Counted from the stretch's first letter, positions 34,183-63,999 are shown. The stretch is DNA of 64,000 nt from Candidatus Cloacimonetes bacterium HGW-Cloacimonetes-3 (GCA_002840645.1 PHBO01000001.1:156731-220730), one strand, 5' to 3'. Notes: generated from the sequence alone by a model not told the origin. A program made the numbers and translations.

Positions 34183-35947
34183 GCCAACCAGTGACCGTTT
34201 AGATTACAGCCAGATACTCGCTCCTCCCCCTGGATATGAAACCGTTTTTGCAGTAGGAACAACTTACTCACTTGACCTAGATGCTCTTATCGGAGCATGT
34301 ATAGCATTGGGTTTATCAGAAAGTACTGATAGCGCATTGAAGGATAACCCTCTCTACCTGCTCGAAGCACTCCGCAAAACATCCGATAAACTGTTGCTCT
34401 TTTGTGAAGCTGGTCAGATTAAGGCTCCCGGTATATCGAATAAACTACACCTCCTTCTTGAGAAGATGGTGGTAGAAATTGTGATGAAGAAAACGAAATC
34501 CTTCCATCCCAAGCTTTGGTTGGTTAAGTATGAAAATGCAAAGAAAGATACTCTGTACCGGTGTGTGGTGCTAAGCCGTAATCTAACTTTTGACCGCAGT
34601 TGGGATGTATCAGTTTGCATGGAAGGAAAGCCTGTTTCTGAAGCGAGCATCGATAAAACCAAACCTCTAACTGACTTTTTTATTGCTATATCACAGCTTG
34701 TTAATCGTCACGACATTGATAAGACAAAAAAGAAGTCACTATTGAGTCTAAGCACTGAACTCCAGAATGTGGAGTTTCAGCTTGAGAGCAAGATATTCAC
34801 TGATTTCAGCTTCTGTCCTGTGGGAATCTCCGGTTATGGTAAAGCACAAAGCGGGCTGTTCAAATCATACAACGAAATGTTGATAATCTCGCCATTTCTG
34901 AGTAGTAACATAGTTTCTGAGTTTAATACACTTGCCCTTACCAGTCAGCAACCCAAAACACTAATCACCCGTAAAACAGAATTGGCTAAACTCAGTCCGG
35001 ATGCTATTTCCAAATTTAACCTATTCGTTATGAAAGACATGGTCATTGATGGCGAAGAGAGTCTCGGCGAAGGTGATAATGATGACAAGCAAAGCCAGGA
35101 TATACACGCTAAGTTGTATTTAAAGACTAAATACTCAGATAGCGAGCTATTTATAGGTTCCCTGAATGCTACGAACAGTGCTATCAATGGGAATATTGAG
35201 TTTATGTTCAAGCTGTCTGGAAAACGAAGAAATCTGAATGTAGATGCCCTAAAACGAGACCTTTTTGGAGCCGATGACAAGAACAATCCGTTTGAACAAG
35301 TGGAGATAACAAATGATGCTGAACCGCCTCCAACAATCATAGAAAATCTGGATTTAGTTATCAAGGCCATCTGCAGGTTAAAAAGTAGTGCCAAAGTGCT
35401 TGAGATAGGCGACCAGTATTCTGTAGAGTTATCTTTTACAGGGTATCACCAGAATGATAATGTGTTTATCTCACCTTTAATGAAACCGGGCATGGAGCAG
35501 AACCTTACTGCAGCAATCAGGTTTGATAATCTTGATCTGCTCCAGTTGTCAGAGTTTTATATTATCCGTGTGATCGGTACAGAATCAAGCCTTAGAAGGG
35601 TTATCAAGATTAATACAGAGAATATGCCTGATAACAGAGAAAGCATGATAGCCAATAGCATTATCAGGAATAAAAGTGATTTCATCCAATACATCACTTT
35701 CATTCTGGGTGACAATTACCTTATCACAATGCTTGAGAATGCAAATCAGGCAAATTCGTTTAACTTTACCCACAAAGAACCTGTTCCAGCTCTCTATGAA
35801 AAGATGCTCAAAGCAGCGGCGCATTCACCTGGTAAACTTGATGAGATAAAGCAAGTACTGGAGCTTATAACTGATGACAGTAAGATACCGGACGGCTTCA
35901 AAGAATTATATGATCTATTTATGAAAGTGGTAAAGAAGAATGCTTGA
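34175..35947 (+). CDS. Phospholipase D-like (HKD) domain protein
   Basis: Two HxK motifs: SFHPKLWLVKY and IHAKLYLKTKYSDSELFIGSLNATNSAINGN. Start at 34175 overlaps the upstream stop. Confidence 0.82.
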   Translation: MFKPTSDRLDYSQILAPPPGYETVFAVGTTYSLDLDALIGACIALGLSESTDSALKDNPLYLLEALRKTSDKLLLFCEAGQIKAPGISNKLHLLLEKMVVEIVMKKTKSFHPKLWLVKYENAKKDTLYRCVVLSRNLTFDRSWDVSVCMEGKPVSEASIDKTKPLTDFFIAISQLVNRHDIDKTKKKSLLSLSTELQNVEFQLESKIFTDFSFCPVGISGYGKAQSGLFKSYNEMLIISPFLSSNIVSEFNTLALTSQQPKTLITRKTELAKLSPDAISKFNLFVMKDMVIDGEESLGEGDNDDKQSQDIHAKLYLKTKYSDSELFIGSLNATNSAINGNIEFMFKLSGKRRNLNVDALKRDLFGADDKNNPFEQVEITNDAEPPPTIIENLDLVIKAICRLKSSAKVLEIGDQYSVELSFTGYHQNDNVFISPLMKPGMEQNLTAAIRFDNLDLLQLSEFYIIRVIGTESSLRRVIKINTENMPDNRESMIANSIIRNKSDFIQYITFILGDNYLITMLENANQANSFNFTHKEPVPALYEKMLKAAAHSPGKLDEIKQVLELITDDSKIPDGFKELYDLFMKVVKKNA

Positions 35948-38900
35948 AAAGCTAAAGTCAATTGAACAAACTGTCTTAGATGGCTTGAAGGACTTCCAAC
36001 TGGCGACTGCCAAAAGAGTCTTTGAGCTATACAAGCAAGGTCAGAAAAGAGTCTTGGTGGCTGATGAAGTGGGACTAGGTAAGACCCTGATCGCTAAAGG
36101 AGTAATTGCTCAAACAGCCAGATATCATTATGAAGATATGCAAGACGAACTTTTTAAGGTAGTTTATGTATGTTCTAATCAGGTTATAGCCAATCAGAAT
36201 CTGAATAAGCTGAAAATCTGTGAAGACATCACAGTGGATGGGGTCACAGATACCAGGCTATCCATGCAACATTTGAAGATTTATGAGCAGGAGTCTGATC
36301 CTAAGATAAAAGCAAACTATATCCAATTGATTCCACTTACTCCATCAACATCGTTTTACATTACAAGTGGCGGAGGCAGTGCCAGCGAAAGGGCGTTGAT
36401 CTATGCAATTCTTAAGAGAACAAATCTCTTCAGGGAGTTGTTTGAAAAGCATGAAGAGAAAATGAATGACATCTTTACTTGCACTGCAACAACTGGATGG
36501 ATAGCAGAAAGAAACAGATATGAAGAACGCGTTGTAAGATGCAACACTAATTCTGGTGGTTCGTATTTAAAAATGATTACCAGCTTAGTAGAAAAGAGTA
36601 TCTTAGACAATGGCTTGTTCGACGACATCGCCTCTCTGATCATAGATAAAAGTGGGCAGTATGTCGTTATGGGTAAGCTAAGGATGTTGTTTGCAGAAAT
36701 CAGCGTTGATCTCCTTAATCCTGACTTGGTTATAATGGATGAGTTTCAGCGGTTCAGATCACTGATTAAGGAAGATAACTCCAGCGAAACAAGCGTTCTG
36801 GCTCACAAGTTCTTGATGGGCAATGATGTAAAAGTGCTACTACTCTCTGCCACTCCCTACAAGCTATATTCCACTCTTGAAGAAATTTATGAAACAGGCA
36901 GTGATGATCCATACTATGAGTTTCTGGAAGTAATGAAGTTCATACAGCCCAATAAGCATCAGGAATTCAAAGAAATCTGGAGTAACTACTCTCTAAAACT
37001 CAGGGAACTGCACCAGGACAAAACATCGATCATTGAAGCCCGTGATATTGCAGAAAATGCTATGTACCAGGGAGTCTGTCGAACTGAGAGAATGGCTGCA
37101 ATTAAAAAAGCAACTTTGATCGATGACACCAAGGCTAAACAAGCAATCAGTATAAACGAAAACGACATCGTTACCTTTTTGGAAGCAGAAGATTTAGTGA
37201 AGAGTATATCTGGAATCAGTACTGTGCCCGTTGAGTACGTAAAATCCTGCCCATACCTACTTTCATTTTCGAATCAATACAAGTTCAGAAAGAACATCGA
37301 TAACCATTTTCGGCATAATCAACAGATGATAAACCAAGCTAAGAGAAAGATGCTGTGGATAGATGAAAGCGGCATTGAGAAATATAAAGAACTTATCACA
37401 GCAAATGCCAGACTGGAGATGCTCAAAGAGATCGCTTTCGAGAAGAAATCTGAACTGCTGCTCTGGATTCCACCCTCTAAGCCTTATTATGAACCACAGG
37501 GGGCATTTAAAGAAGCACATAACTTCTCTAAGATACTGGTGTTTTCGGCTTGGGAGATGGTTCCCCGAATGATTGCTTCCCTCATTTCATATGAGGCAGA
37601 ACGGCGATCTGTTGGCAAGCTTGTTGCTTTGAATAAAGATAAGAAGAATACGACATATTCAGCACCAAATAGCAGACGCTTCCCGGTTGCAAGATTACGT
37701 TTTAACATTGAAAATGATATGCCACAATCAATGAGCTTATTCTGTCTCCTATATCCATCTCAAACCTTAGCTGAGATTTATAATCCAATCAGTTACCTTA
37801 ACGAAGGTCACAATCTACATGAAATAGAAGATGAGTTGAAGAGCATTATTGAAACCAAGCTTAGCAGATTGACCGTTTATCAAGCTAACCCCAACAGAGT
37901 GGATGAAAGATGGTATTATTTAGCACCTATGCTCTTAGATAATGTGGACTACGTAGAGAAATGGCTTGCTTATGGCAAAGAGCTTATCTCAGCCAGTTTA
38001 GATGAGGACGAGCAGAAAAGTCAAAAAGGTTTTGAGGTTCACCTTGCAAAACTAAGGGAATATTATAGAAATCCTGATGCTGCTCAACTGGGACTGTTTC
38101 CGGTAGACTTGGCTCAAGTCTTATGCAGAATGGCTTTGGCTTCACCTGCTGTATGTGCTTATCGAGCCTATGGTCAGAACGCAAATTATGCTTCTCAATT
38201 TGCCAAGGCTATGATCAATCTCTTTAACAGAAATGAAGCGACTGCAATAATAGAGCTCTGCTACGTGAAAACAAGTGAAGATGCACATTGGATGAATGTG
38301 CTGCATTACTGTAGAGATGGCAATCTCCAGGCGATGCTGGACGAGTTCATTCACATGCTTACCGAATCAAATGGCTTAATTGATAATGAAAACAGGTACA
38401 AAGCTACCCATACTTTGATGCTGAATACCATGAAAACCCACTCAGCAAGTTATACAGTAGATACCTATCGAACCTTTAAGACCAATATTCTCAAAGGTAA
38501 GGAGAAGGGTATTTCACTCAGGTCTCATTTTGCTGTTGGATTCTATAAAGGCGAAGGCGAAAGCAGTAAGATAGTAAATCGTAAAGAGAGTATCAGAAAT
38601 TCATTTAACTCACCCTTTAGACCCTTTGTATTGGCTACTACATCTATCGGACAGGAGGGATTGGACTTCCATTACTACTGTCGAAAAATCATGCATTGGA
38701 ATCTGCCTTCAAACCCCATCGATCTCGAACAGAGAGAAGGTCGAATCGACAGATTCAAATGCCTTGCAATCAGGCAGAACATAGCAGAAAAGTATGCCGG
38801 AACGATTACATTCAAAAATGATGTATGGACAGAGATGTTTGATAGAGCAAAGCTGGAATACAATCCTGAGTACTCCGAATTGGTTCCATTCTGGTGTTTG

Positions 38901-39125
38901 CCAGATGCACAGGGCAGCAAGATTGAACGCATTGTCCCATCCTATCCACTGAGTAAGGATATAGGGAATTATGAAAGGTTAATCAAGATACTATCGTTAT
39001 ACCGATTAACTCTGGGTCAGGCAAGGCAGGAAGAGCTATTGGAGCATATCTTCAAGAACTTTGAGAATGGTGAGGAACTAAAAGAGCTTTTCATAAACTT
39101 GAGTCCATACTATAGGGATCATTGA
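35940..39125 (+). CDS. SF2 helicase (SNF2/DEAD-like), partner of PLD and DUF6361
   Basis: Walker A ADEVGLGKTLIAKG, motif II VIMDEFQRF, motif III LLLSATPYKLY, motifs V/VI ATTSIGQEGLDFH...LEQREGRIDRFK. Confidence 0.87.
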   Translation: MLEKLKSIEQTVLDGLKDFQLATAKRVFELYKQGQKRVLVADEVGLGKTLIAKGVIAQTARYHYEDMQDELFKVVYVCSNQVIANQNLNKLKICEDITVDGVTDTRLSMQHLKIYEQESDPKIKANYIQLIPLTPSTSFYITSGGGSASERALIYAILKRTNLFRELFEKHEEKMNDIFTCTATTGWIAERNRYEERVVRCNTNSGGSYLKMITSLVEKSILDNGLFDDIASLIIDKSGQYVVMGKLRMLFAEISVDLLNPDLVIMDEFQRFRSLIKEDNSSETSVLAHKFLMGNDVKVLLLSATPYKLYSTLEEIYETGSDDPYYEFLEVMKFIQPNKHQEFKEIWSNYSLKLRELHQDKTSIIEARDIAENAMYQGVCRTERMAAIKKATLIDDTKAKQAISINENDIVTFLEAEDLVKSISGISTVPVEYVKSCPYLLSFSNQYKFRKNIDNHFRHNQQMINQAKRKMLWIDESGIEKYKELITANARLEMLKEIAFEKKSELLLWIPPSKPYYEPQGAFKEAHNFSKILVFSAWEMVPRMIASLISYEAERRSVGKLVALNKDKKNTTYSAPNSRRFPVARLRFNIENDMPQSMSLFCLLYPSQTLAEIYNPISYLNEGHNLHEIEDELKSIIETKLSRLTVYQANPNRVDERWYYLAPMLLDNVDYVEKWLAYGKELISASLDEDEQKSQKGFEVHLAKLREYYRNPDAAQLGLFPVDLAQVLCRMALASPAVCAYRAYGQNANYASQFAKAMINLFNRNEATAIIELCYVKTSEDAHWMNVLHYCRDGNLQAMLDEFIHMLTESNGLIDNENRYKATHTLMLNTMKTHSASYTVDTYRTFKTNILKGKEKGISLRSHFAVGFYKGEGESSKIVNRKESIRNSFNSPFRPFVLATTSIGQEGLDFHYYCRKIMHWNLPSNPIDLEQREGRIDRFKCLAIRQNIAEKYAGTITFKNDVWTEMFDRAKLEYNPEYSELVPFWCLPDAQGSKIERIVPSYPLSKDIGNYERLIKILSLYRLTLGQARQEELLEHIFKNFENGEELKELFINLSPYYRDH

Positions 39126-39237: not shown

Positions 39238-39810
39238 TTATCGTTTCCATTTGTATTCAATTAGGTCTACAAAGCCGTCTTCACCGCGAACTGAATCTAA
39301 GCCATTGTACTCATCTGAGTGCTTGAAAGTAAGAAACAAGACACCTTCGCCGATATCAGCGTTTGGTTTACGCTTGTGGTCATAGTAACATCTTGGGGCA
39401 ATGACTAGCTGTCGAAAAGGCTCGTTAAGGCTCCAGCTATCGCCCTTTAACTCCTGAAACTGCTGATCTATTCTTACAATGTTTTTTAGCAATTCTTCAG
39501 CGTATGCACGTACTTGTTCTGCTGCCATATTAGTAGATCCGCTTCCATTTGTATACTTTGTTTCAATAATGTAGAGATTTCTTTCCTCATCATAAGCTAC
39601 AAGATCTATTCTCTTTTTTTCAATAATGACTTCACCTAAGGGTATTTCATAACCGCAAGTCATAATAACTCTATTGTTTTGTTCGACCAAGCGCAATTTC
39701 GCTCTAGATGTGAACAGTTCCCATTGCATATGTTGTTCTTTTCTACTAATGTCTGGCTCTTTGAAGCGGTCGTAATTGAATAAGTGCAGGGGTTTGGTAC
39801 GGGTTTTCAT
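39238..39810 (-). CDS. PD-(D/E)XK nuclease-like protein
   Basis: KKRIDLVAYDEERNLYIIETKYTNG: D-Xn-ExK core. Confidence 0.65.
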   Translation of the reverse strand: MKTRTKPLHLFNYDRFKEPDISRKEQHMQWELFTSRAKLRLVEQNNRVIMTCGYEIPLGEVIIEKKRIDLVAYDEERNLYIIETKYTNGSGSTNMAAEQVRAYAEELLKNIVRIDQQFQELKGDSWSLNEPFRQLVIAPRCYYDHKRKPNADIGEGVLFLTFKHSDEYNGLDSVRGEDGFVDLIEYKWKR

Positions 39811-39833
39811 TGTAATCTACTCCTTGGGGTAGT

Positions 39834-40559
39834 CTAGTACAGGCTGTCATCAGCAACGTGAATAAACACTTTATGTATATTCTCAGAATTGTACAGCTTC
39901 TCAATGCCCAGTGCCCGATCCTGTATGTAAAGAGAACTTTCCCAACCTGACACATCTTTGGGGCAATTGTATTTTGAATCCCGTACATCTCCTATGAAAT
40001 AAACAAGTACGATATGAGGATTATAGTTGTTCCGCTTCAGATAATCAAATAGCACAAGACGATTAGCGAGTTGGTAATAGCTATTGAGCCAATGGCTTTC
40101 ATTGTATTCTATGTTTAAACTCTCTGCAGTTCTCTTAAATGCTCTTGATATTTTGTTAATACTTACTTCTGATGTTGCTTTGCATTTAGATAGAAGTTCT
40201 TGTGTATGAGCTTTAGCCTCAACAAGAATAATATCTCTATTTTCATGTCCTTTACTTTTTAAATCGCTTGATACTAACCAACCGACAGCATCCCAATTAT
40301 GTTGTTCTCCAGAGGTAGGCCATACTTCTTTCCAGCCAGACACAACTGATTCGCTGTCTATGAATTCTAAACCTTTCAATTCAGAGTCGTACCATTTATC
40401 TTTTTCATGATTGAAATTGAAATCTAGCCAATCAATCCTTGCGTCACTTGTTGAATTACCCATAGCATTTATTATTGCCTTGTTAAAAGAATTTCTATGT
40501 CTGCCCATCCATCTAAGTAAATGGCATTCACTACCATATCCTATTCCTATTTTTGCCAT
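39834..40559 (-). CDS. PD-(D/E)XK nuclease-like protein
   Basis: NWDAVGWLVSSDLKSKGHENRDIILVEAKAHTQEL: D-Xn-EAK core. Confidence 0.55.
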   Translation of the reverse strand: MAKIGIGYGSECHLLRWMGRHRNSFNKAIINAMGNSTSDARIDWLDFNFNHEKDKWYDSELKGLEFIDSESVVSGWKEVWPTSGEQHNWDAVGWLVSSDLKSKGHENRDIILVEAKAHTQELLSKCKATSEVSINKISRAFKRTAESLNIEYNESHWLNSYYQLANRLVLFDYLKRNNYNPHIVLVYFIGDVRDSKYNCPKDVSGWESSLYIQDRALGIEKLYNSENIHKVFIHVADDSLY

Positions 40560-42604
40560 GATTTCTCCTTTGAATCAGTCTCATAAGTTATGTATGTTTC
40601 ACTAAATTCATTATTGAAATTCGCTTTTAACCATGCACTATGATAAGCAATTTTTGTCAATGTCATAGCATGATACTTTGGAAAAGCCATTCTACCATAG
40701 CTTTTAAAGAAGCTTAATACTTGATTTATTACTGGTTCAGTGAAACCATGCTCAAGAGCTTTAGTGGTAAAAGTCTCGAAGATGAGTTTAACTTCTTTGG
40801 GCTTTCCATGTATCAGTATTCTCTTGAAATTTTTTGCTTCTTCATCGGTGTATCCTGCCATTTGTCGCACCAAGCTAATTGTCTGCTCATGATAGATAAG
40901 CATGCCATGAGTCTCTGTTAAAATGCTTCTAAGTATAGGATGGGGATATTCCTGTCTGTTCTTGCGTCTATTTAAGTAGTCATTTAAGCGTTTATCTGGT
41001 TTTATTGTGTTAAGCACCATAAATGCCATCAATTCATTGAAACAGCATGGTTTGAACTTTTGTAATGCTTGCCGGGTGTAATTTGCATCAAGATGAAGGA
41101 CTCCCTCAGTTTCACCTCTTGCTATTATTGCATATGTTGAAGCGTCATTGAGTGGAATCGTATCAGGGTTTAAAGATAGCCCCCGGTTTTCCTTGATCAG
41201 AGCTAAGCAGTTCTGCATATCAATAAGAGCCTCCAGCTCAAAAATGTACAAGATTGGGTAACCGAGTTGCTCTAAAGCATGTATGTCAAATTGGTTATAA
41301 GGTATTGATTGATTGCGTGGCACAATTGGCAAAGGAGCATTACTCGGAACTATAACGAAGACTGTGGGCATGTATCCAATTCGTTCAAACACCCCCTCTA
41401 AGTCCGATATAATGCTTACTACCTTTGAGTAGAGATAGTTTTCCAAGGCGAAACAAGAGAAATCAATGGATTGCATTATCGCATCAAAAACAGACTTTGA
41501 GTACTTTGGCATCATATCAGTCAGCCATTCTATTTTGTCTTCAGAGACACCTAATACCCTGGCCACAGCACTAAACAGGTTCTTTGTGGAATAGCGACCA
41601 TATGTGCTTACAGGCACGATTTGAAAGTCACTGAAGCCATCTTGCACAGTTTCAACTAAATCATCCAGCATGCCAGATGGAATGTGTAAGTTGATCCTAT
41701 TCTTGGCTTTATATGATATGTAATTGCATTCAGGAAGGCTGCACTGCTGCAATTTTTCGAGGATGTCCGAAGCATTATGATTCATCTCTAAGGGGAGCTC
41801 AGACAAGAGATCAAGTTCAATACTCTCAGCAATTGTGAGGGTATTCGAAATAGCCTGTGGAGGATGATCGATGAGCTTTTTCATCTCCTGGGGTGTTTTG
41901 AAATAGTATTCATTGCAGGCAAATCGTTTGCTCTCAGCAGCTTTGAAGTCCATTCCTGTGCGCATGCAATTCAAGGCATCGATTGCTTCTGATTGCCGTT
42001 TATCTATGTAATGGCAGTCGTTTGTCAATACCACCTGAGTCTTAGTTTGGTACGCAAGGTTCAGTAGCAGGTTCATGGCAATCGCTTCCTTGGGTAATCC
42101 ATGATTCTGAAACTCCAGATAGTACCTGTCACTAAAGACAGACTTGTACCAATCGATGGTTTGAAGAGCATCATCCTGCTTATCTTCAAGAAGGAGAGTA
42201 CCCAGTTCTCCCACGACGCTGAATGAAAGGCAAATCAAACCTGTAGAATGTTTTGCCAATTGACTTTTAGTGGCCTTGGGTTCTGATCTATCATTCTCAT
42301 AAGCAAGACTGATCAAGCGGGATAGATTGTGGAAACCTTCCAAATTTTGAGCTATAAGAATCACCGAGAAAGCTCTGCTATCGCTAATATCATTTATAAC
42401 ACTGATCTCCAGTCCAATGATGGGTTTTATCCCTACGTCATTACACTTCTGACTGAACCGTATTGCTCCGGCTATTGAGTTTCTGTCTGTAATTGCTACA
42501 GCAGGCATCTTAAGTTCCTTGGCTCTTTTGACTAGCTTTTCTATCTGGCATGCGCCATCGAGCCAACTGTATTCAGTGTGAACATGTAAATGAACAAACG
42601 ACAT
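40547..42604 (-). CDS. Truncated, apparently polymerase-inactive DNA polymerase III alpha (DnaE)-like protein (PHP + degenerate palm + fingers)
   Basis: PHP: FVHLHVHTEYSWLDGACQIEKLVKRAKELKMPAVAITDRNSIAGAI; TNDCHYID; fingers: IPLNDASTYAIIARGETEGVLHLD...HGMLIYHEQTISLVRQMAGY...PKYHAMTLTKIAYHSAWLKANF. GRGS and PDxDxD palm motifs not found. Confidence 0.85.
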   Translation of the reverse strand: MSFVHLHVHTEYSWLDGACQIEKLVKRAKELKMPAVAITDRNSIAGAIRFSQKCNDVGIKPIIGLEISVINDISDSRAFSVILIAQNLEGFHNLSRLISLAYENDRSEPKATKSQLAKHSTGLICLSFSVVGELGTLLLEDKQDDALQTIDWYKSVFSDRYYLEFQNHGLPKEAIAMNLLLNLAYQTKTQVVLTNDCHYIDKRQSEAIDALNCMRTGMDFKAAESKRFACNEYYFKTPQEMKKLIDHPPQAISNTLTIAESIELDLLSELPLEMNHNASDILEKLQQCSLPECNYISYKAKNRINLHIPSGMLDDLVETVQDGFSDFQIVPVSTYGRYSTKNLFSAVARVLGVSEDKIEWLTDMMPKYSKSVFDAIMQSIDFSCFALENYLYSKVVSIISDLEGVFERIGYMPTVFVIVPSNAPLPIVPRNQSIPYNQFDIHALEQLGYPILYIFELEALIDMQNCLALIKENRGLSLNPDTIPLNDASTYAIIARGETEGVLHLDANYTRQALQKFKPCCFNELMAFMVLNTIKPDKRLNDYLNRRKNRQEYPHPILRSILTETHGMLIYHEQTISLVRQMAGYTDEEAKNFKRILIHGKPKEVKLIFETFTTKALEHGFTEPVINQVLSFFKSYGRMAFPKYHAMTLTKIAYHSAWLKANFNNEFSETYITYETDSKEKSWQK

Positions 42605-42613
42605 TTGCTCCTC

Positions 42614-44482
42614 CTAAAATCCTATAATCTTTGTTGAGTTATTGCCTGCCCAGGGCTGCTCAAGAGCAGCGTATTTGACGATATCGGCCATCGTGAGGCG
42701 TTTAAACTTACCAGAGCGAGTAATGGCTTCACTACACGCATTATTAACAACAAGGGCTATCTGTCCGCCTGTGAATTCGTAGGTCTTTGCCAGATATTCA
42801 ATATCGATGTCTGTCGCACCAGGGATATCTTTACTAACGTGTAGCTTCCAGAGCATTATGCGGCAAGGGAGATCGGGTGGATTGAACTTTAGTTTCAAGT
42901 TGAACCTGCGGAAATATGCTTCATCGATGTTTTCATCCAGATTTGTGGTGAGAATCATTATCCCCGGAAAGCTCTCCATTGCCTCCAGGATGATGTTTTG
43001 AATTGAGTTATCTGTTCTGGAACCATAGCTATTCCTTTCGCTTCTATTATGAACAAGCTGATCAGCTTCATTGATGAGAAACACCGGGGGATTATCCATT
43101 TCGACAGACATCTTGTGCATCAAATCAAAGGAATTCTTGACCAGCTTCTCGGACTCGCCATAATAACTATCACGTAGCGCTGAGCAGTCTAATCCAACTA
43201 ATGGCTTCAGAAGAGCATTGGCTACAGCTCCGGCTGCATAAGTCTTGCCTGTTCCTGGCTTACCATAGAACAGAGCAATCATTCCTTTCTGAGAGTTATG
43301 TCCGATATTTAGTCCCCAATTGGCAAAGTCTTGGCAATCCAGTTGTTTGTAGCGATGGGTCAATGACATTAGCAGAGATTTGTCATGCTTTGGGAGAATC
43401 AGATCATCGATTGATTGCACTACATGAACCAATTTTAAGGCATTATTCTGCGACAGATAGTAAATTATCTGAGGCTTTTTTACTGATTTTTGCTCTCCAC
43501 AGAGTCGCAGCTTCAATTCTTCGGGGATTGAAAAGTCTCTTCGATTGGCAAAGCTTCTTACGTCTTCTACTTGCAGCAGGCATTGGGCAGTAAGTTTTGA
43601 TTCTGGTCTTAAATAACGGGAGTAGCAACTAATTTCTTGGTCACTATTACAAATGATCCCAAGCAACTCATTTTCTGTTATGCAATTATCTTGTGTTAAC
43701 TGGGTATAGAGAACCAATATCAGGATGCAAATTTCGATCTTATCAAGCTCATGGTCATTAATGAGCTTGGTGATAACCAACTCATTTCGGGCTTGGCCAA
43801 GCTTCACAAGCAAAGGCTCAATGCATAAAAAGAAAACATCCGCCTGGATACTCTTGGATCTTCTCCGGCGGTTTCCCTCAATTTCACCAAAGCAACTGAA
43901 GATAGTATTCATGCACTGATTCAAATCACTAATGAAATCAGAATCAGACAGCCAATCATGGGCGATAAGTCTGCCAATTTCATTGGGTATACTCCTGCCA
44001 AGTATCTTCATGATCAATAGATTGCTCAGCATAAACTCGCCCGACAGCAGAATTATCGGATTGATATGATAGTCACTCTTGATCGATTCATCAAATGTGA
44101 TAAGCTTGCGGTCAAGAAGGCTCTCGATGTATGCCAGGCAGGTATTGGTATCATAGACATTCATCTTTAGTTCTCTGCAGAGGGCATTCCAGGACATACT
44201 TGTACCCATACACTCTATGTGCTTTTTCCATAGAATGGCAATGCACAGTACATCCATCTTGGTCAGCTGATACTCAACAAATTCTGGATGCGAGATCAAT
44301 GGGGAAATCTCTTTGCTTAGTTTTCGCTGTGATACTTGTGTGGTAGTGGTCTGGCTTGCTAAAGTGACCTCTCTTGGCTTCTTGCCTATCTCGTGTCTTG
44401 CATCAGGAAATGACTCTGGATCATTCATAATCATAACTTTGTGCAGGATGTTAACTGGGCACAGAAACTCATTGCTATTCAT
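42614..44482 (-). CDS. AAA+ ATPase
   Basis: Walker A FYGKPGTGKTYAA, Walker B PVFLINEADQL (D->N variant), sensor LTTNLDENIDEAYFRRFNLKLKF. Confidence 0.87.
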   Translation of the reverse strand: MNSNEFLCPVNILHKVMIMNDPESFPDARHEIGKKPREVTLASQTTTTQVSQRKLSKEISPLISHPEFVEYQLTKMDVLCIAILWKKHIECMGTSMSWNALCRELKMNVYDTNTCLAYIESLLDRKLITFDESIKSDYHINPIILLSGEFMLSNLLIMKILGRSIPNEIGRLIAHDWLSDSDFISDLNQCMNTIFSCFGEIEGNRRRRSKSIQADVFFLCIEPLLVKLGQARNELVITKLINDHELDKIEICILILVLYTQLTQDNCITENELLGIICNSDQEISCYSRYLRPESKLTAQCLLQVEDVRSFANRRDFSIPEELKLRLCGEQKSVKKPQIIYYLSQNNALKLVHVVQSIDDLILPKHDKSLLMSLTHRYKQLDCQDFANWGLNIGHNSQKGMIALFYGKPGTGKTYAAGAVANALLKPLVGLDCSALRDSYYGESEKLVKNSFDLMHKMSVEMDNPPVFLINEADQLVHNRSERNSYGSRTDNSIQNIILEAMESFPGIMILTTNLDENIDEAYFRRFNLKLKFNPPDLPCRIMLWKLHVSKDIPGATDIDIEYLAKTYEFTGGQIALVVNNACSEAITRSGKFKRLTMADIVKYAALEQPWAGNNSTKIIGF

Positions 44483-44506
44483 CTTATACCTCTCAACTGC
44501 GATTTA

Positions 44507-45184
44507 TTAAAGCTCATCCACTGCCGTTAACTTATCCACAGCATATTGCTTCTGATACTGTGTTTGACCGTTTCTAATCCTATTCATGATAAGCGTGAAC
44601 ATCTCCTTCTCAGCAGGATCAATGATGTCGCTGAGGAAATCGTTCACGTCATTTTCCGTCAGTTTGCGGTATCTGGAGGCTGTAGTAAAATACTTCAATG
44701 ATTCCTGTGTATCTGGATTGGGATGACTGCTGATCTTGACTCTCTTTTGCTCTACGATATAGCCATTCAACTCCATGATGATTTTTATCATGTAACCTGT
44801 TACTTGTTTAAACTGGATGTAGTCATCACCAGCTTGGGGTAATTCCGGATAAAAAGCCATCAATCTGTAAGACATAGCTTCTGCGGCTGGTTTTTCCATC
44901 TCGGTCGCAGTTATCATGCGGATTGTGTTCTCTCGGGAGCAAAGGAACGCCCATAACCTATTCGAATCGTGGGTATCACTTTCCAGTAAATTTCGCAGCC
45001 TAGGACTTAACAAATGTATGGGAATTGGATGTTGATCATCAAACACAAAGGGTATTCTATCTTTGCCATATAGTCTGGCACAAAGATCATTCATAAGACC
45101 CATTTCCCCTGCTGTCTTCTCATTGTTAGAGTCAACAAATAGCTTTGTAGCTCGATAGATTATACTAAGTGCATCCAGTTTCAT
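44507..45184 (-). CDS. Hypothetical protein, first gene of the AAA+/DnaE-like operon
   Basis: 225 aa, co-oriented, 24 nt upstream of the AAA+ gene. Confidence 0.65.
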   Translation of the reverse strand: MKLDALSIIYRATKLFVDSNNEKTAGEMGLMNDLCARLYGKDRIPFVFDDQHPIPIHLLSPRLRNLLESDTHDSNRLWAFLCSRENTIRMITATEMEKPAAEAMSYRLMAFYPELPQAGDDYIQFKQVTGYMIKIIMELNGYIVEQKRVKISSHPNPDTQESLKYFTTASRYRKLTENDVNDFLSDIIDPAEKEMFTLIMNRIRNGQTQYQKQYAVDKLTAVDEL

Positions 45185-45727: not shown

Positions 45728-48616
45728 ATGATTACTGACTTCCATGCAAAGTACTATGCATACGAGCTCAGCCGTATGGGCGGAGCAGGCGTAGAAAGAG
45801 TGGGAAGAGCTTTGTTCGATGCTTGTGTTGATCTTAATCCCCACCAGATCGAAGCTTCCTTGTTCAGTTTACGCTCTCCAATATCCAAAGGCGTTCTATT
45901 GGCGGATGAAGTTGGACTGGGGAAAACCATTGAAGCTGGCTTGACTATCTGTCAGTATTGGGCAGAGAAAAAGCGCAGAATCCTGATCATTTGCCCTGCA
46001 TCACTGCGAAAGCAATGGGCATTGGAGATGCAGGAGAAATTCAATCTTCCGGTGCAGGTATTAGATGCTAAAACCGCCAAAGACCTGGTGAAGAAAGGTC
46101 ACGACAACCCTTTCGATACTAAGCAAATAGTAATCGTTTCCATGCATTATGCCGGGCAGAACGCAGGATCAATAAAATTACTCCCATGGGATTTAGTGGT
46201 GATTGATGAAGCTCATAAGCTGCGCAATGCCTACAGACAAAGCAATAAACTGGGGCAAGAGATCAGGCGGGCAACTGAAGGAATCAAGAAGATACTGCTT
46301 ACTGCGACTCCTTTGCAAAACTCGCTTACAGAGCTATACGGTCTCTCCACTCTGATTGATGAAAACCTCTTTGGTGATTTACCTTCATTCCGTTCACAAT
46401 ACATGAATTCCGGTGGTAGCCTAAGCGATTTGAAAGAACGCTTGCAGACCTTTTGCTGGAGAACCCTTCGTAGCCAGGTATTGGAATATGTGAAGTTCAC
46501 AGAACGCAGACCCATCACCCGTCCTTTCACTCCTACCCAGCAAGAACATGATCTGTACATGGGTGTCTCTGAGTTCCTCAAAACAGAGGAAAATTATGCT
46601 CTCCCACAAGGGCAGAAGCATCTTCTGATCCTCCTGGTTCGCAAAGTACTGGCTTCGTCACCTCATGCGGTGGCAGGAACTCTGGAGATTATCAGAGACC
46701 GCTTAGTTAAGCTTAGACAAGACTACCACAAGCAGCAAAGTGCCTTACAACAATTGATTATAGACGACTACATAGATGATGATCTGCTGGACGAGCTTTT
46801 AGAAGATCAGGAAGACTTGGAAACTGAGACTGAGCCAGTCACTCCTCCTGAAGCAGATCAACCTAAAAAAATCGACTTAGCCAAATTAGATGCTGAAATA
46901 CAAGCTTTGAATGGCTATATAGAGACTGCCAGAAGCTTCGGGGTGGATTCTAAATCCAAAGCACTGCTTACCGCCTTAGATATAGGCTTTTCCCAAATGC
47001 AAAAAATGGGAGCAGCCCGCAAAGCAGTGGTCTTCACAGAATCCAGACGCACCCAAGCCTGGCTCAAGGATTATCTGGAAGCCAATGGCTATGCCGGAGA
47101 AGTACTCACCTTCAATGGTTCAAATAAAGATGATGCTACTGGTCAAATCTATACTGAGTGGTTAGCAGAAAATCAAACCAATGGCAGATCATCAGGTTCC
47201 AAACAGGTTGATTTACGCACAGCAATCATAGAACGCTTCAGGGATCAATCCAGCATCCTGATTGCCACAGAAGCTGGTGCTGAAGGCTTAAACCTGCAAT
47301 TCTGCTCTATGGTGATCAATTATGACCTACCTTGGAATCCCCAACGCATTGAGCAGAGGATTGGTCGCTGTCACCGCTACGGACAGAAGCACGACGTGGT
47401 AGTGATCAATTTCCTGAATGAACGTAATGAAGCAGACCAAAGAGTATTTGTAATCCTCTCAGAGAAGTTTCACCTGTTCTCCGGTGTCTTTGGTGCCTCT
47501 GATGATGTCCTCGGTTCGCTGGAGTCAGGAGTTGATTTCGAACGTAAAGTGCTGGAGATTTATCAGCAATGCCGTACCGCGGAGGAGATTGCTACAGCAT
47601 TTAATAAACTTCAGAAAGAGCTGGAAGATACGATCCAAACCAGGATGAAAGATACTCGCCGCAAGCTCTTGGAACATTTTGATGAAGATGTTCATGAACG
47701 CCTCAAAGCAAACCATACCGATGCAGTAGAAGCCCTGGACAAGATAGGAAAGCTCTTCTGGCAATTAACGATGCACATCCTGAACAAGGAAGCATCCTTT
47801 GAAGAGAAAACCCATACATTCAGTCTAAAGAAAGCTCCCTGCAAAGGCAGCCGTCCCGGTACTTATCGTCTGATCTCCAAAGACAGCGAAAACTTCGGAA
47901 ACGATTTCCTGTATCGCATGAGCCATCCCTTAGGTGAATACGTTCTGGAGCAGGGAAAAAAGAAAACCTGCCCTCCCGTAGAAGTGGTTTTTGACATCAG
48001 TAAACACCCCACCAGAATCACTCTAATCGAACAATTGAAAGGGAAGCACGGATGGCTCAGGCTTGACATGCTTGCAGTTAACTCTCTGGATACTGAAGAG
48101 TATCTGCTGTTCACGGCACTGGATGATGCAGGCAATAGCCTTGACCAGGAGACCTGCGAAAAGCGGTTCTTATGTAATGGCTTCGTCTCGGATCAATCTC
48201 TTGATGTAATACCTGCGGATATTAACCTGCAAAATAATGCAGAAAGGCACGTAGAGGCTACTTTAGCCAAGAACCTAGAAGAGAATAACAAGCACTTTAC
48301 CGAAGCCCGTGAACAACTGGAGAAATGGGCAGATGACATGGTAAAATCTGTCGAACGGGAATTGGATGATATCAAAAGACAGATTCGGGAAAAGCAGAGA
48401 CTTTGCCGTCAAAGCCCTACATTGAAGGAACAGCACGATTTACAGGAAGATATCGCCAAGCTGGAAAAGAAGAAACGCAAATTGCGTGAGAAGATATTTG
48501 ACACAGAAGACCAGATTGCAGAAAAAAGGGATAAGCTGATTGATGCCCTGTCTCACAGGCTTAAACAAAAGACGAAAACCACAACCCTCTTCACCATCCG
48601 GTGGAAAGTAGTATAA
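45728..48616 (+). CDS. SNF2-family helicase
   Basis: LADEVGLGKTIEAGL, LVVIDEAHKLRN, LLTATPLQNSLTELYGL, EAGAEGLNLQFCSMVINYDLPWNPQRIEQRIGRCHRYGQ. Confidence 0.92.
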   Translation: MITDFHAKYYAYELSRMGGAGVERVGRALFDACVDLNPHQIEASLFSLRSPISKGVLLADEVGLGKTIEAGLTICQYWAEKKRRILIICPASLRKQWALEMQEKFNLPVQVLDAKTAKDLVKKGHDNPFDTKQIVIVSMHYAGQNAGSIKLLPWDLVVIDEAHKLRNAYRQSNKLGQEIRRATEGIKKILLTATPLQNSLTELYGLSTLIDENLFGDLPSFRSQYMNSGGSLSDLKERLQTFCWRTLRSQVLEYVKFTERRPITRPFTPTQQEHDLYMGVSEFLKTEENYALPQGQKHLLILLVRKVLASSPHAVAGTLEIIRDRLVKLRQDYHKQQSALQQLIIDDYIDDDLLDELLEDQEDLETETEPVTPPEADQPKKIDLAKLDAEIQALNGYIETARSFGVDSKSKALLTALDIGFSQMQKMGAARKAVVFTESRRTQAWLKDYLEANGYAGEVLTFNGSNKDDATGQIYTEWLAENQTNGRSSGSKQVDLRTAIIERFRDQSSILIATEAGAEGLNLQFCSMVINYDLPWNPQRIEQRIGRCHRYGQKHDVVVINFLNERNEADQRVFVILSEKFHLFSGVFGASDDVLGSLESGVDFERKVLEIYQQCRTAEEIATAFNKLQKELEDTIQTRMKDTRRKLLEHFDEDVHERLKANHTDAVEALDKIGKLFWQLTMHILNKEASFEEKTHTFSLKKAPCKGSRPGTYRLISKDSENFGNDFLYRMSHPLGEYVLEQGKKKTCPPVEVVFDISKHPTRITLIEQLKGKHGWLRLDMLAVNSLDTEEYLLFTALDDAGNSLDQETCEKRFLCNGFVSDQSLDVIPADINLQNNAERHVEATLAKNLEENNKHFTEAREQLEKWADDMVKSVERELDDIKRQIREKQRLCRQSPTLKEQHDLQEDIAKLEKKKRKLREKIFDTEDQIAEKRDKLIDALSHRLKQKTKTTTLFTIRWKVV

Positions 48617-48626
48617 GGAGAAATGG

Positions 48627-55168: not shown

Positions 55169-55244
55169 CAAAATGACAGATAGAAGACTTTATGAGATAC
55201 CCATGAATCTTGTATAAGTCAGTCTATGAAAAAGGAGCATTTAG

Positions 55245-56654: not shown

Positions 56655-56663
56655 GAGTTTACA

Positions 56664-59919: not shown

Positions 59920-60435
59920 TTAGTTTAAGCATCGTCTTCCACCTAAGCGATTCAAACCCCGGAGTTGACCCAATATACCTTTCTGGACTTTTCTGCCGAT
60001 TTTGGGCACGTTTTGGCGGGAAATAACTACATATATGAAGCCTCTCAGATCAACGACCTCAATTGATGCCAATGCCTCCAGATAGATATAGACCCACTGT
60101 CTGGATTTACCTATGTCTTGTGCAATATCTCGGATTGACTTGTATCTGCCTTGTTCCAGGATGTCCAGAAGCCTGTGGGCATCTGCTATGCTGAAAGTCC
60201 ATCCCCTGTAGTGCTGATAGCCTATTCTGGCTTGGTAGCGGTTGGCTCGGACATATATGGGAGGACTATCTTCTATCTGTTTGATTGCCCGACCTTGAAT
60301 CAGTTCAGACAATGTCTGATCTATGATGTCTGCTTCAATACTGGTTAACTGAGCTATTACATTAGCATTGAAAGGTCGATCATACTGATTGATGAAGTTG
60401 AGGATTAGTTCTTTGTCCGTCATACTGCCCTCAAT
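59920..60435 (-). CDS. Small HTH-containing protein of the transposition module
   Basis: MIEGSMTDKELILNFINQYDRP...YKSIRDIAQDIGKSRQWVYIYLEALASIEVVDLRGF resembles an HTH; follows the transposition ATPase. Start uncertain (listed ORF extends to 60465). Confidence 0.5.
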   Translation of the reverse strand: MEGSMTDKELILNFINQYDRPFNANVIAQLTSIEADIIDQTLSELIQGRAIKQIEDSPPIYVRANRYQARIGYQHYRGWTFSIADAHRLLDILEQGRYKSIRDIAQDIGKSRQWVYIYLEALASIEVVDLRGFIYVVISRQNVPKIGRKVQKGILGQLRGLNRLGGRRCLN

Positions 60436-61141
60436 CATCCAAATCGGCTTGGGTGACCAGTTCAAGGTTCTTGTAAATACCTATCTCCTCTACTGAGCGA
60501 ATAAGCTTCATGGCTTTTCGGACATTACCGCAGGAGTGGAAGTGGACATATTCGACAACATCCGGATGGAACTTGATTTCCAGAATCTCACTGCATAACT
60601 GGGCAACATCCTTCTTGGGCAGGTCTTGGAACTCATAGAAGAAATTGCATCTATCGAAGTAATACTCATTGATCTGGTTGAGCTTATCCTTGGCATTCTG
60701 CATCCCGACCAGGATCACTATCGATGTGGTCTCATCCACGATATCCCTGATCGCACCTAAGAGCTGTGGGTGTCGGAAGGCATAGTCTATCTCATCCACC
60801 ACTATGATCGTATCACGATGATCTTCCAGTGTCGACAAGCACAGCATAAAGAGGTCATTAGCTGTACCGTATGGTACATACTCTCCCAGGCCAAATCTCT
60901 TGTATAAGGCTAAGAGTAGCTTGGAGGCAAATGCCTTGGGTGTGGTTGTTGCTTCCAGTCTGAGATAGACATAACCCTTACTGAAAGCAATCCGGTTCGC
61001 ATACGTGGTCTTACCCAGACCTGGTCTACCATACAGCAACCCGAGCCCGACCATCTCCAGTTTGGGTCGATTCAGGAGGTATTCAATGCATTTATCGGCT
61101 GCGATTACGTTCTGAGTCCTGACTAGTTTTCCTTGTTTCAT
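60431..61141 (-). CDS. AAA transposition ATPase (MuB/TniB/TnsC-like)
   Basis: LGLLYGRPGLGKTTYANRIA; DTIIVVDEIDYAF; immediately downstream of a MuA-like transposase. Confidence 0.8.
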   Translation of the reverse strand: MKQGKLVRTQNVIAADKCIEYLLNRPKLEMVGLGLLYGRPGLGKTTYANRIAFSKGYVYLRLEATTTPKAFASKLLLALYKRFGLGEYVPYGTANDLFMLCLSTLEDHRDTIIVVDEIDYAFRHPQLLGAIRDIVDETTSIVILVGMQNAKDKLNQINEYYFDRCNFFYEFQDLPKKDVAQLCSEILEIKFHPDVVEYVHFHSCGNVRKAMKLIRSVEEIGIYKNLELVTQADLDD

Positions 61142-61150
61142 TATTACCTT

Positions 61151-63715
61151 CTAATTGGTTATCCCGATTCGTTTGAGTAGTTCTGCTCTGGATAGATGTG
61201 CGAACGGTGACTGCTCTTTCTCTTCCTCATCTTGTTTTTGCTTATACACTTCCATGTTCTCTGTTTTGTTGAGAGTGATATTCGATTGATCTCTCTCTTC
61301 AGCTATAGGACTTGCCTCATCGGTTGTTGCAGTGCCAATTTGATCTGCGGAATCTTGTTCTGTTAAGGCTGTTTGTTTCGATTTGTAATGCTCTCTCGCT
61401 GTCTTACTGAAGGCTATCTTCATAGATATGGGCATTTCACCATTGCTGTCATTATAATCTAGTCCTATCCTCTCAAAGGAAGCCCTGATCTCTTGCTCTA
61501 TTATGCGATTTATCTCTATTTCTGCCAGTCTCTCTTTCTCCTTAGCATCAAGCTGTTCCCGCTCTTCAGGACTCAGCATATCAGGATGCTTCGGCAGGTT
61601 CATCATCGCCTTTCTGGTCATCTCTTCGATGATCTCATCACTATCCCTTGGTGGAGCCTCCAGCATGGGAGGACTGTTGAAGATTGCTCTGGCACCCTGA
61701 TCCTCAAGTTTCTCTTGCTTGGCTGTTGATGTACCCAAGATTCTATCAACTGCCTTCTGTGAGTTCACTACCAACTTCTTGGCATTGCGTTCTTTCTCTC
61801 GTCGGAGTCCCTTGATCTCGTTGTATTCTTTATTGAGTTCCTTATGCGATACTGCCTTATCCATCGAGACTTCAATGAACGGATGTTGCGTCTTCCGGAG
61901 AGCTGCCTGGCAGATGAAGACATCGTTCTTATCATAGACCACGATCCATCTGGCATCACTGTAATCGAATCTGATAATACAGGGCTGTCCCACATGGTTC
62001 ACCATGTCCCGATGCCAATAAACCTTCTTATCTAGTCTGATGCCTTCACTACGGATGTTCTTGCGTTCCATTGCCATCATCAGGAAGTTCAGCTTAGAGA
62101 TCTCCACTTGTCGATTCTCAGCTATTCTGGCTGCACTGAAGACCTCGTAAGGAGTCCGTCTATTGAGTGAAGTATGCGGAGTCTCACCATAACAGAATCG
62201 CACATAGAAGGCGATCATCTGCATTGTCTCTTCAATGGTAGGTGGCTTACCGGTATAGAGCTTCTTAGCCCACTTCTCGTTGCGGTGTAGCACTGATGGT
62301 TTATCTGCAATTGATGCTCCTCTGAAGGTGGTAATGAACCTCTCAAACTGTTCCTGGAAGGTCTTGAAGAAGCGTTCGATCACCTTGGCTTTGGCATTGT
62401 AGCTTTCTGCGAATCTTACCCCAATATTGAGCCGGGGGAAGATGCCTCCCAGTTCCTTGTTTAGATCATGTTCTTCCCAACTCTCATGAAAGAGTTTGGC
62501 TCGGAAGGCTTTACCATTATCCAGATAGACATACTCCGGCAGTACTGCCATCGTTCCGCTATTGTTATCAGCTATCTGAGAGCAGTTGATGAAACCGTTG
62601 CGGAAGGCGGTGAGGATATGCTGGCTATCTTCAGTAAAGGCGAGTGAAGCTCCCACCGGATATCTGCTTGCCCAGTCCATCACCATGATCATCGTCATAC
62701 GCTGTGCTCTTCCGGTCTGAGGATTGAGAATATCAAAGGAGAGGGTATGTCCATCCGCTACCCATACCTGTCCCACAGATAAGCTGCTATCATCTCGCAT
62801 AATGGTCTTGATGATCCGCTCCGAGACGAACTTACTGCCATCTCTGGCTTGATGCCATTCTGCAGGATGCCTGGCAGCCCATTCCTCGCACCAGCGTCTG
62901 AGCGTCCGTTCATTGGTCTCTGATTCTATTACTTTGTTTCTGGACATCTGCTTGAGGTTAGTAATGGCAGAGCCGATCTTGATCCGATTGGGATTGAGTA
63001 GCAGATGCAGCAGATAGTGTTGTTCCTGAAAGGTGATCTTACGTTCTTTATACTTGCCCTTACTCTTATGTATCAGGGCATACATATCCAGCTTATTCTC
63101 AAGGTAGATATTGAGCCACTCTCGCAGTGCTCTCTCCTTCCGTGGTCCTTTGAGGTTGTAGAGCTCCGGCACCAGTCTCTTGGTGTTATAGTCATTGGTG
63201 ATGCGTTTCCAGGCTAGTGTCCTGGAATCTACTCCATGCAATCTGCGGTACACTTCCTGGCAGAATCTGCCATAGAGCTGAGCCTCATCTTTGAATAGCA
63301 GCCTCTCCTCTTCCACAGGAGCCAGATCAAGGAATTCATTGGAGAAATCAATCACCACATCATTATCACGGGCTTCGTGGATCAGAGTGAGCTTGCGTTC
63401 AAAGTCCAGATAGTCTTCATACGTCTCATAGACTGTCTCGGACTCCAGATTATCTTCTGAACTATCTGCTTTAGCGTTATACTGCTGGCTGTAGGCAAGC
63501 ATGTAGCTGTTGTCGGCGTCAGAATCTGAACCATTGCCTTCATCTTTACCACTAACCTTGCCTAATCCAGCCTTAACCACAGGAACCACTATACATCTGC
63601 CTCCACTCTTGATTTCCAGCTTCAGTCCCTGGCTTTCCATCAGTTCTTGCAGTTCATTCAGCTTATTGCGATATTCTCTCAGGAACTCCTCAGTCGGTCT
63701 GCCGCTATAGGGAAA
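61151..63715 (-). CDS. MuA/TniA-like DDE transposase
   Basis: rve-fold VWVADGHTLSFD...VYLDNGKAFRAKLF...KAKVIERFFKTF (D, D, E). Start placed at 63715 because GGAGG lies 7 nt upstream of that ATG. Confidence 0.85.
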   Translation of the reverse strand, partial: FPYSGRPTEEFLREYRNKLNELQELMESQGLKLEIKSGGRCIVVPVVKAGLGKVSGKDEGNGSDSDADNSYMLAYSQQYNAKADSSEDNLESETVYETYEDYLDFERKLTLIHEARDNDVVIDFSNEFLDLAPVEEERLLFKDEAQLYGRFCQEVYRRLHGVDSRTLAWKRITNDYNTKRLVPELYNLKGPRKERALREWLNIYLENKLDMYALIHKSKGKYKERKITFQEQHYLLHLLLNPNRIKIGSAITNLKQMSRNKVIESETNERTLRRWCEEWAARHPAEWHQARDGSKFVSERIIKTIMRDDSSLSVGQVWVADGHTLSFDILNPQTGRAQRMTMIMVMDWASRYPVGASLAFTEDSQHILTAFRNGFINCSQIADNNSGTMAVLPEYVYLDNGKAFRAKLFHESWEEHDLNKELGGIFPRLNIGVRFAESYNAKAKVIERFFKTFQEQFERFITTFRGASIADKPSVLHRNEKWAKKLYTGKPPTIEETMQMIAFYVRFCYGETPHTSLNRRTPYEVFSAARIAENRQVEISKLNFLMMAMERKNIRSEGIRLDKKVYWHRDMVNHVGQPCIIRFDYSDARWIVVYDKNDVFICQAALRKTQHPFIEVSMDKAVSHKELNKEYNEIKGLRREKERNAKKLVVNSQKAVDRILGTSTAKQEKLEDQGARAIFNSPPMLEAPPRDSDEIIEEMTRKAMMNLPKHPDMLSPEEREQLDAKEKERLAEIEINRIIEQEIRASFERIGLDYNDSNGEMPISMKIAFSKTAREHYKSKQTALTEQDSADQIGTATTDEASPIAEERDQSNITLNKTENMEVYKQKQDEEEKEQSPFAHLSRAELLKRIGITN

Positions 63716-63999
63716 CATCCGAACCTCCAGCTTTCTCATTACCAGACGCAATTGAGTTGTTACCATTCTCATAATAGACCAGGAAGACACTGGGATAGCT
63801 ATGCTCGCCCAGATCGATCACTTCCTCAAAGTACAGCTCCGGTTTGCGCAGGCTATCTCTGAATCTGTCATACTCAGCCTGAATGATCTCTTCCGTTGCC
63901 AGCACAAAGGTCTTGATCGTAGCTCCGTTCTTGGTTGGTATCTGATGCTTGAGTGCGGTTAGCTTCCCGGCATCCACCATTCTTCTGATCGTCTTGAGA
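63705..63999 (-). CDS. N-terminal DNA-binding component of the transposition module (5' truncated by window end)
   Basis: Frame open to the window edge (...LKTIRRMVDAGKLTALKHQIPTKNGATIKTFVLATEEI); overlaps the transposase start (ATG inside gATGTTTCCCTATAG). Confidence 0.6.
   Translation of the reverse strand, partial: LKTIRRMVDAGKLTALKHQIPTKNGATIKTFVLATEEIIQAEYDRFRDSLRKPELYFEEVIDLGEHSYPSVFLVYYENGNNSIASGNEKAGGSDVSL

What the first reader, a model, noticed from the sequence alone, without database searches (positions are those of the whole stretch)
39238..45184. Five-gene operon: hypothetical - AAA+ ATPase - polymerase-dead DnaE-like protein - two PD-(D/E)XK-like nucleases (candidate undescribed defence system)
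Seen: five co-oriented, tightly spaced minus-strand genes, flanked on both sides by other defence-type cassettes. Components are an AAA+ ATPase, a PHP/DnaE-derived protein without palm catalytic residues, and two small proteins with D-Xn-E-x-K cores. I know of no named defence system with an inactive DnaE homologue as core. Inference: the DnaE-like protein could sense or mimic the replisome or act as a PHP nuclease, the AAA+ protein could remodel, and the nucleases could be effectors.
Basis: partly seen in the sequence, partly recalled or inferred. Interest (0 to 1): 0.88.

Follow-up and report, generated by a model that had tools for sequence, protein, structure and literature searches.

The report
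Dead-polymerase AAA–nuclease defence-island operon
A five-gene operon in a mobile defence island of an uncultured bacterium (Cloacimonadota) is built around a shortened copy of the host's own replicative DNA polymerase that has lost both of its catalytic sites yet is kept by selection, next to an AAA ATPase and interchangeable DNA-cutting enzymes, which suggests an undescribed anti-phage system that uses a dead polymerase as bait or adaptor.

Summary
Confirmed: five co-oriented genes at 39238-45184 (-), between Azaca genes (ZacABC) and a DrmD/type III RM/SIR2-HerA block. p3 is not a decayed dnaE. It belongs to a well-supported clade of 'mini-DnaE' proteins (14 places in 12 of 125 Cloacimonadota genomes, usually 455 or 682-685 aa, dN/dS about 0.06-0.29) that branches inside the host phylum's own DnaE. 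It lacks the thumb, most of the palm and all catalytic Asp. Its PHP metal site is also dismantled in the same way (H-R, H-S, C-S/G) in 10 of 11 members, whereas 20 of 20 host DnaE keep it. p5-AAA-mini-DnaE recurs in five other places. In the three closest copies the gene just after mini-DnaE is a different PD-(D/E)XK protein each time, and homology stops at the mini-DnaE stop codon: constant core, swappable nuclease. PADLOC, Pfam and NCBIfam name no such system; p5 has no PDB fold match. Best reading: an undescribed defence-type operon in which a captured, doubly inactive PolIII-alpha acts as non-enzymatic bait or adaptor, the AAA protein remodels, and the PD-(D/E)XK proteins cut. Defence activity is inferred, not shown.

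The parts
44507..45184 (-). p5, 225 aa: first gene of the constant core; mostly helical, central domain about residues 60-175; unknown function
   Evidence: No Pfam/NCBIfam/PADLOC/PHROG family (PAS_10 E=6e-4 is below cut-off). 9 full-length homologues, all immediately upstream of the AAA gene. AF2 pLDDT 82.5, no PDB or BFVD fold match.
42614..44482 (-). p4, 622 aa AAA ATPase (Cdc48/IetA-like C-terminal module; N-terminal ~380 aa helical with wHTH-like segments; Walker B DE replaced by NE)
   Evidence: N471, E472, K413, T414, R525, R526 invariant in 22 homologues.
40547..42604 (-). p3, 685 aa mini-DnaE: PHP (1-270), palm remnant, fingers; no thumb, no catalytic Asp, PHP metal site HHDHEHCDH changed to HHDRESSDH
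   Evidence: tree; dN/dS.
39834..40559 (-). p2, 241 aa PD-(D/E)XK-type protein in the variable slot (D90, E114, K116)
   Evidence: Motif invariant in A2; replaced by REase-ARP or DUF6946 proteins at the same slot in relatives.
39238..39810 (-). p1, 190 aa PD-(D/E)XK-type protein (D69, E83, K85)
   Evidence: Homologues in G015, G026, G018, G002 near mini-DnaE; weak DpnII/HSDR_N/NucS similarity.
59920..63790 (-). Likely mobile-element context, not part of the operon: HTH protein, TniB/TnsC-like AAA, TnsB/Mu-type transposase; the contig ends 210 bases beyond
   Evidence: the same trio (86% nt identity) directly precedes p5 in the second copy of this genome (L029).

Best explanation
A defence-type operon carried in mobile islands of Cloacimonadota. 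Shown: the core p5-AAA-mini-DnaE is constant and the PD-(D/E)XK gene after it is exchanged between relatives; mini-DnaE is a captured copy of host PolIII alpha that has lost the polymerase site and the trinuclear PHP exonuclease site, and is still under purifying selection. Inferred: mini-DnaE works without catalysis, as a decoy or adaptor that presents a PolIII-alpha-like surface, either to be hit by phage factors that act on the replicase or to dock on replication intermediates; p5 and the AAA protein (predicted N-terminal winged-helix-like segments) sense or transmit this and remodel the complex; the PD-(D/E)XK proteins then cut phage or host DNA.
For: Recurrence of p5-AAA-mini-DnaE in G015, G028 (p5 lost at a contig edge), G026, G018 and a diverged second copy in the same genome. 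Nucleotide homology of window with G028 and G015 ends at the mini-DnaE stop (40557), after which come p2, REase-ARP and DUF6946, all with D..ExK motifs. Mini-DnaE is one clade (100/100) inside Cloacimonadota DnaE (98/90; the narrower nesting within one family 85/86). PHP ligands HHDHEHCDH in 20/20 host DnaE; R41, S80, S/G129 in 10/11 mini-DnaE. dN/dS about 0.06-0.29, lowest in the PHP part. Defence neighbours: Azaca, DrmD/type III RM, SIR2-HerA, HmaA in G015 and G026.
Against: No phage challenge or biochemistry. Genomic location in a defence island is circumstantial. p2 has no library hit and p1 only sub-threshold ones, so the nuclease calls rest on motif and neighbours. Mini-DnaE occurs without p5/AAA (G001, G002, G027, G038), so the complex is not obligatory. 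Four PHP ligands that could hold one metal (H7, H9, E66, D196) are kept in the intact members, so some residual chemistry is possible. Nothing shows which partner mini-DnaE contacts.
Confidence: 0.5

Rival explanations
1. Mini-DnaE keeps a remodelled one-metal PHP site and is an enzyme with changed chemistry (nuclease or phosphoesterase), the other genes being accessory.
For: H7, H9, E66, D196 (the M1 tetrad by the YcdX scheme, recalled from memory), D16 and H198 are kept in 10/11 members; PHP is the most constrained part (dN/dS 0.09-0.21) and the fingers are absent from the short forms.
Against: Three of nine ligands are replaced in the whole intact family; by the published criterion (HHDHEH[C/H]DH, PMC12926913) such a site counts as inactive; host DnaE of the same phylum keep all nine.
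Confidence: 0.25
2. The operon is a restriction-like or toxin-antitoxin module: the PD-(D/E)XK protein is an auto-toxic nuclease and mini-DnaE (with or without p5/AAA) is its specific inhibitor or chaperone.
For: Minimal two-gene units exist: REase-ARP + mini-DnaE in G001 (overlapping genes, no p5/AAA) and p2-like + mini-DnaE in G062; genes overlap or nearly touch.
Against: The nuclease partner changes family while mini-DnaE stays nearly constant, which fits a specific inhibitor poorly; G027 has intact mini-DnaE with no nuclease beside it.
Confidence: 0.12
3. It is an accessory of a Tn7-like transposon that steers insertion to replicating DNA (compare the TnsE-clamp link, recalled from memory) rather than a defence system.
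For: TnsB/TnsC/HTH genes lie directly upstream of p5 in L029 and 15 kb away in the window; the HTH gene is upstream of p5 in G018; AAA relatives sit next to the same trio in G010 and G001, and next to TnsC-HTH at a contig edge in G031.
Against: No transposition genes within the fetched DNA next to the operon in G015 and G026, or next to mini-DnaE in G001, G002, G027; swappable nucleases and Azaca/Hma/SIR2-HerA neighbours look like cargo.
Confidence: 0.07
4. p3 is an ordinary decayed dnaE copy and the cluster is a chance array.
For: It is truncated; a few members are broken (G017) or diverged (G038).
Against: One clade with a fixed 455-aa length in six genomes, dN/dS about 0.06-0.29, identical ligand substitutions, and recurrent gene order.
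Confidence: 0.02

Closest known systems
Bacterial DNA polymerase III alpha, DnaE1 (e.g. Thermus aquaticus 2hpi; the genome's own dnaE)
   Same: PHP, part of the palm and fingers; 43% identity to the host protein over the PHP domain; clade nested inside host-phylum DnaE
   Different: Lacks thumb, catalytic Asp, clamp-binding/OB/tau regions and three PHP ligands; linked to AAA and nuclease genes
Noncanonical PolX and PolX-like proteins (PMC12926913)
   Same: Polymerase-family protein whose polymerase function is lost while the PHP part persists
   Different: X family, PHP site conserved and active; here C family and the PHP site is dismantled too
IetAS (AAA ATPase plus subtilisin-like protease)
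   Same: AAA module similar (PADLOC IetA E=8e-23, NCBIfam IteA E=1e-22, below cut-off)
   Different: Long distinct N-terminal region; no IetS protease; partners are p5, mini-DnaE and PD-(D/E)XK proteins
Ppl and other PHP-ATPase defence proteins (Gao et al., from memory)
   Same: PHP domain with an ATPase in a defence context
   Different: PADLOC gives no hit of any kind to p3 at E<=1; PHP here is DnaE-derived and lacks ligands
PARIS and other ATPase-nuclease defence operons (from memory)
   Same: Works-like level: sensor/ATPase plus releasable nuclease, mobile-element cargo
   Different: No sequence relation found; different ATPase class and no polymerase-derived part
phrog_7513 (461 aa) and split phage DnaE
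   Same: Phage protein family of similar length matching the PHP part (E=9e-45)
   Different: Mini-DnaE branches inside host DnaE, not with the viral DnaE sampled; phrog_7513 members were not themselves placed in the tree

Membership tests
Functional DnaE (PolIII alpha) | Palm catalytic aspartates (PDxDxD and the third Asp) | tested here: not met
   Region absent or substituted in all aligned members
Functional DnaE (PolIII alpha) | C-terminal clamp-binding, OB and tau-binding region | tested here: not met
   Protein ends at about Taq residue 852 of 1220
Active PHP exonuclease | Nine ligands HHDHEH[C/H]DH | tested here: not met
   HHDRESSDH; 10/11 family members alike, 20/20 host DnaE complete
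IetAS | IetA AAA above the family cut-off | tested here: not met
   NCBIfam IteA 80.7 bits against cut-off 510
IetAS | Adjacent IetS subtilisin-like protease | tested here: not met
   No such gene in the operon
Ppl / PHP defence families in PADLOC | p3 matches a PADLOC PHP model | tested here: not met
   0 families at E<=1
PD-(D/E)XK nuclease superfamily (p2, p1) | D..(E/D)xK core in a conserved position | tested here: met
   p2 D90/E114/K116, p1 D69/E83/K85 conserved in homologues
PD-(D/E)XK nuclease superfamily (p2, p1) | Fold, or profile match above cut-off | tested here: inconclusive
   p1 only sub-threshold Pfam hits; p2 none in Pfam or PDB; structures not predicted
AAA ATPase | Walker A, Walker B, arginine finger | tested here: met
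   PF00004 above cut-off; Walker B is NE instead of DE
Anti-phage defence system | Protection against phage | not testable with these tools
   Needs experiment
Anti-phage defence system | Recurrent location beside known defence genes | tested here: met
   Azaca, DrmD/type III RM, SIR2-HerA in the window; HmaA beside the G015 and G026 copies

The most novel reading that the evidence does not exclude
Bacteria have turned a copy of their own replicative polymerase, with both active sites removed, into an immune bait: phage factors that attack or hijack PolIII alpha bind mini-DnaE, and this triggers an AAA protein and an interchangeable nuclease (an 'integrated decoy' of the replisome).
Probability: 0.25. 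Interest if true: 0.92.

Novelty: new variant of a known kind. Interest (0 to 1): 0.75.

Why it matters
No defence system that I know of, and none in the PADLOC library searched, has a replicative polymerase derivative as its constant part. A family that has lost both catalytic sites, yet is conserved next to a swappable nuclease, is a clean test case for whether bacterial immunity uses replisome decoys or replisome-docked nucleases. If true it would link phage takeover of the replisome to immune sensing, and it gives a searchable signature (PHP motif TDRNS, no PDIDID) for more such systems.

Tried and rejected
Phage origin of p3: 751 phage records match, but the listed ones are full or ordinary DnaE-type polymerases and no short form was recovered in IMG/VR; the tree puts mini-DnaE in host DnaE. 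Decayed dnaE: rejected by length, selection and synteny. Catalytic PHP exonuclease: disfavoured by ligand loss. Sequestration of a stand-alone epsilon/DnaQ: the two RNase_T-family matches in this genome lie in open frames of 963 and 1550 aa, none in a short stand-alone one, so no obvious epsilon to sequester. Clamp-binding motif: only QWELF in p1, not shared by its homologue in G015, treated as chance. p5 fold search in PDB and BFVD: nothing. p5 in viral contigs: none. Plasmid searches: p5 central domain only as small stand-alone proteins; p4 N-terminus and p1 none; p2 one Azospirillum homologue, without AAA or mini-DnaE listed nearby. Literature searches found no description of such a DnaE in defence. 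Promoter and terminator scans were at chance level.

Full report
OBSERVATION. Five minus-strand ORFs occupy 39238-45184 exactly as described, tightly packed (24 nt, 9 nt, -13 nt, 23 nt). The genome is a Cloacimonadota MAG: its close relatives in GTDB records bear that name. It is 97.5% complete and holds a separate intact 1152-aa dnaE, so p3 is an additional gene.

SURROUNDINGS. PADLOC names the flanking genes: Azaca ZacA, ZacB, ZacC at 32983-39125 (+), and at 45728-58793 (+) a DrmD-type helicase, a type III methyltransferase, a type III restriction enzyme split over two ORFs, SIR2 and HerA. At 59920-63790 lie an HTH protein, a TniB/TnsC-like ATPase and a transposase with Mu-transpos_C and rve domains. 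The contig ends at the window's end. A second, diverged p5-AAA-mini-DnaE copy in the same genome (L029) is directly preceded by the same three transposition genes at 86% nucleotide identity, and its contig also ends there. The island is probably transposon cargo (inference).

WHAT IS CONSERVED. Searching p4 in 98 relatives gave many AAA homologues. Nine full-length p5 proteins (window included) are each immediately upstream of an AAA gene. Mini-DnaE was found in 14 places in 12 of 125 genomes: window, G015 and G028 (682-685 aa); G026, G018, G001, G002, G027, G038 (455 aa); G062 (about 455-484); G000 second copy (359); partial or broken in G017, G022, and a second G028 contig. In six places it is in one operon with p5-AAA. 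In G026, G018, G002, G017 and the second G028 contig a Sel1-repeat protein precedes it, usually with a HExxH zincin (HELAHAYTMAGYDIN); in L029 both lie downstream. In G001 and G062 it forms a two-gene unit with a PD-(D/E)XK-type protein (REase-ARP and p2-like).

SWAPPED NUCLEASE SLOT. Nucleotide homology of the window with G028 (93%) and G015 (78%) runs through p4-p3 and stops at 40557, the end of p3. The next gene is p2 in the window, a REase-ARP/PDDEXK_13 protein in G028 (Pfam 5e-39) and a DUF6946 protein in G015 (5e-58). All carry a D..(E)xK motif (WDAV...ILVEAK; FDLCI...LLFEVK; NDLYV...IIVEAK), yet p2 and the DUF6946 protein share nothing beyond it. p1 homologues, 26-29% identical, occur in G015, G026, G018 and G002.

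MINI-DnaE IS DOUBLY DEAD AND KEPT. Against Taq PolIII alpha the region 286-473 is missing and the protein ends near 852; host DnaE motifs MPDIDID and KMDILGL have no counterpart. PHP ligands were read at nine positions taken from the published motif HHDHEH[C/H]DH (PMC12926913). All 20 Cloacimonadota DnaE sampled have the complete set; 10 of 11 mini-DnaE have R, S and S/G at three of them, with H, H, D, E, D, H kept; the eleventh (G038) is more degraded. A maximum-likelihood tree of the PHP part makes mini-DnaE one clade (100/100) inside Cloacimonadota DnaE (98/90), most likely inside the window's family (85/86, not decisive) and away from the viral DnaE sampled. Its stem is long (1.2), so the exact sister is uncertain. 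dN/dS (NG86) between members is about 0.06-0.29, lowest in the PHP part and higher in the fingers of the long forms. So this is a captured host polymerase under purifying selection, not a pseudogene.

p4 AND p5. p4 has a Cdc48/proteasome-ATPase-like module with an invariant N in place of Walker B Asp in 22 homologues. The predicted N-terminal 380 aa are mostly helical with two helix-helix-helix-hairpin segments that look winged-helix-like (my reading of the secondary structure, not a fold match). The p5 model has pLDDT 82.5 from 9 sequences and no PDB or BFVD match. Its central part exists as stand-alone proteins of about 116-120 aa, one in Cloacimonadota beside a REase-ARP-LRR fusion (L109).

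MECHANISM. Shown: constant core, variable nuclease slot, catalytic loss with selection, host origin, defence neighbourhood. Inferred: mini-DnaE is a non-catalytic bait or adaptor with a PolIII-alpha-like surface; p5-AAA couples a signal to remodelling; PD-(D/E)XK proteins are effectors, exchanged as effectors often are in defence systems. The main rival, a remodelled one-metal PHP enzyme, stays open because the ligands that could hold one metal are kept.

KNOWN SYSTEMS. No match to a named system in PADLOC 2023, Pfam or NCBIfam except generic AAA similarity to IetA far below cut-off. The papers library gave no description; most subscription papers are not in it. As a kind (ATPase plus nuclease operon in a mobile island) it is a variant of something known; the constant dead-polymerase component has no precedent that I know of.

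Noticed in passing
window 51917-55168: Type III restriction enzyme profile is split over two ORFs (positions 17-323 and 463-1116 of 1154), probably a broken or divided gene.
   Followed up: no
L041, L042, L043 (G010, G001, G031): AAA relatives of p4 (about 30%) sit directly after TnsB-TnsC-HTH genes; downstream cargo includes a Sel1-DUF4268 protein and an Nmad3 protein (L042) and a UDG-like protein (L041).
   Followed up: partly
L109 7743-10099: Stand-alone p5-type domain (117 aa) next to a REase-ARP-leucine-rich-repeat fusion of 668 aa.
   Followed up: no
L085 4527-5748 (Acinetobacter sp. TAC-1 plasmid): Small p5-domain protein upstream of a PP2C phosphatase gene on small Acinetobacter plasmids.
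   Followed up: no
L029 3608-4392 and 11521-12181: In the second copy of this genome the Sel1 gene and the TnsC gene are each split in two ORFs.
   Followed up: no
L026 4148-5644, L027 6727-8298: A nuclease pair is fused in one genome and separate in the other.
   Followed up: no
L025 8228-12061 (G051): p5-AAA followed by an alpha/beta-hydrolase with SHOCT domain and an 849-aa ion-channel-like protein instead of nucleases: possibly a membrane-type effector version.
   Followed up: no
PHROG phrog_7513: Phage family of about 461 aa matching the DnaE PHP part, unknown function; worth placing on the mini-DnaE tree.
   Followed up: no
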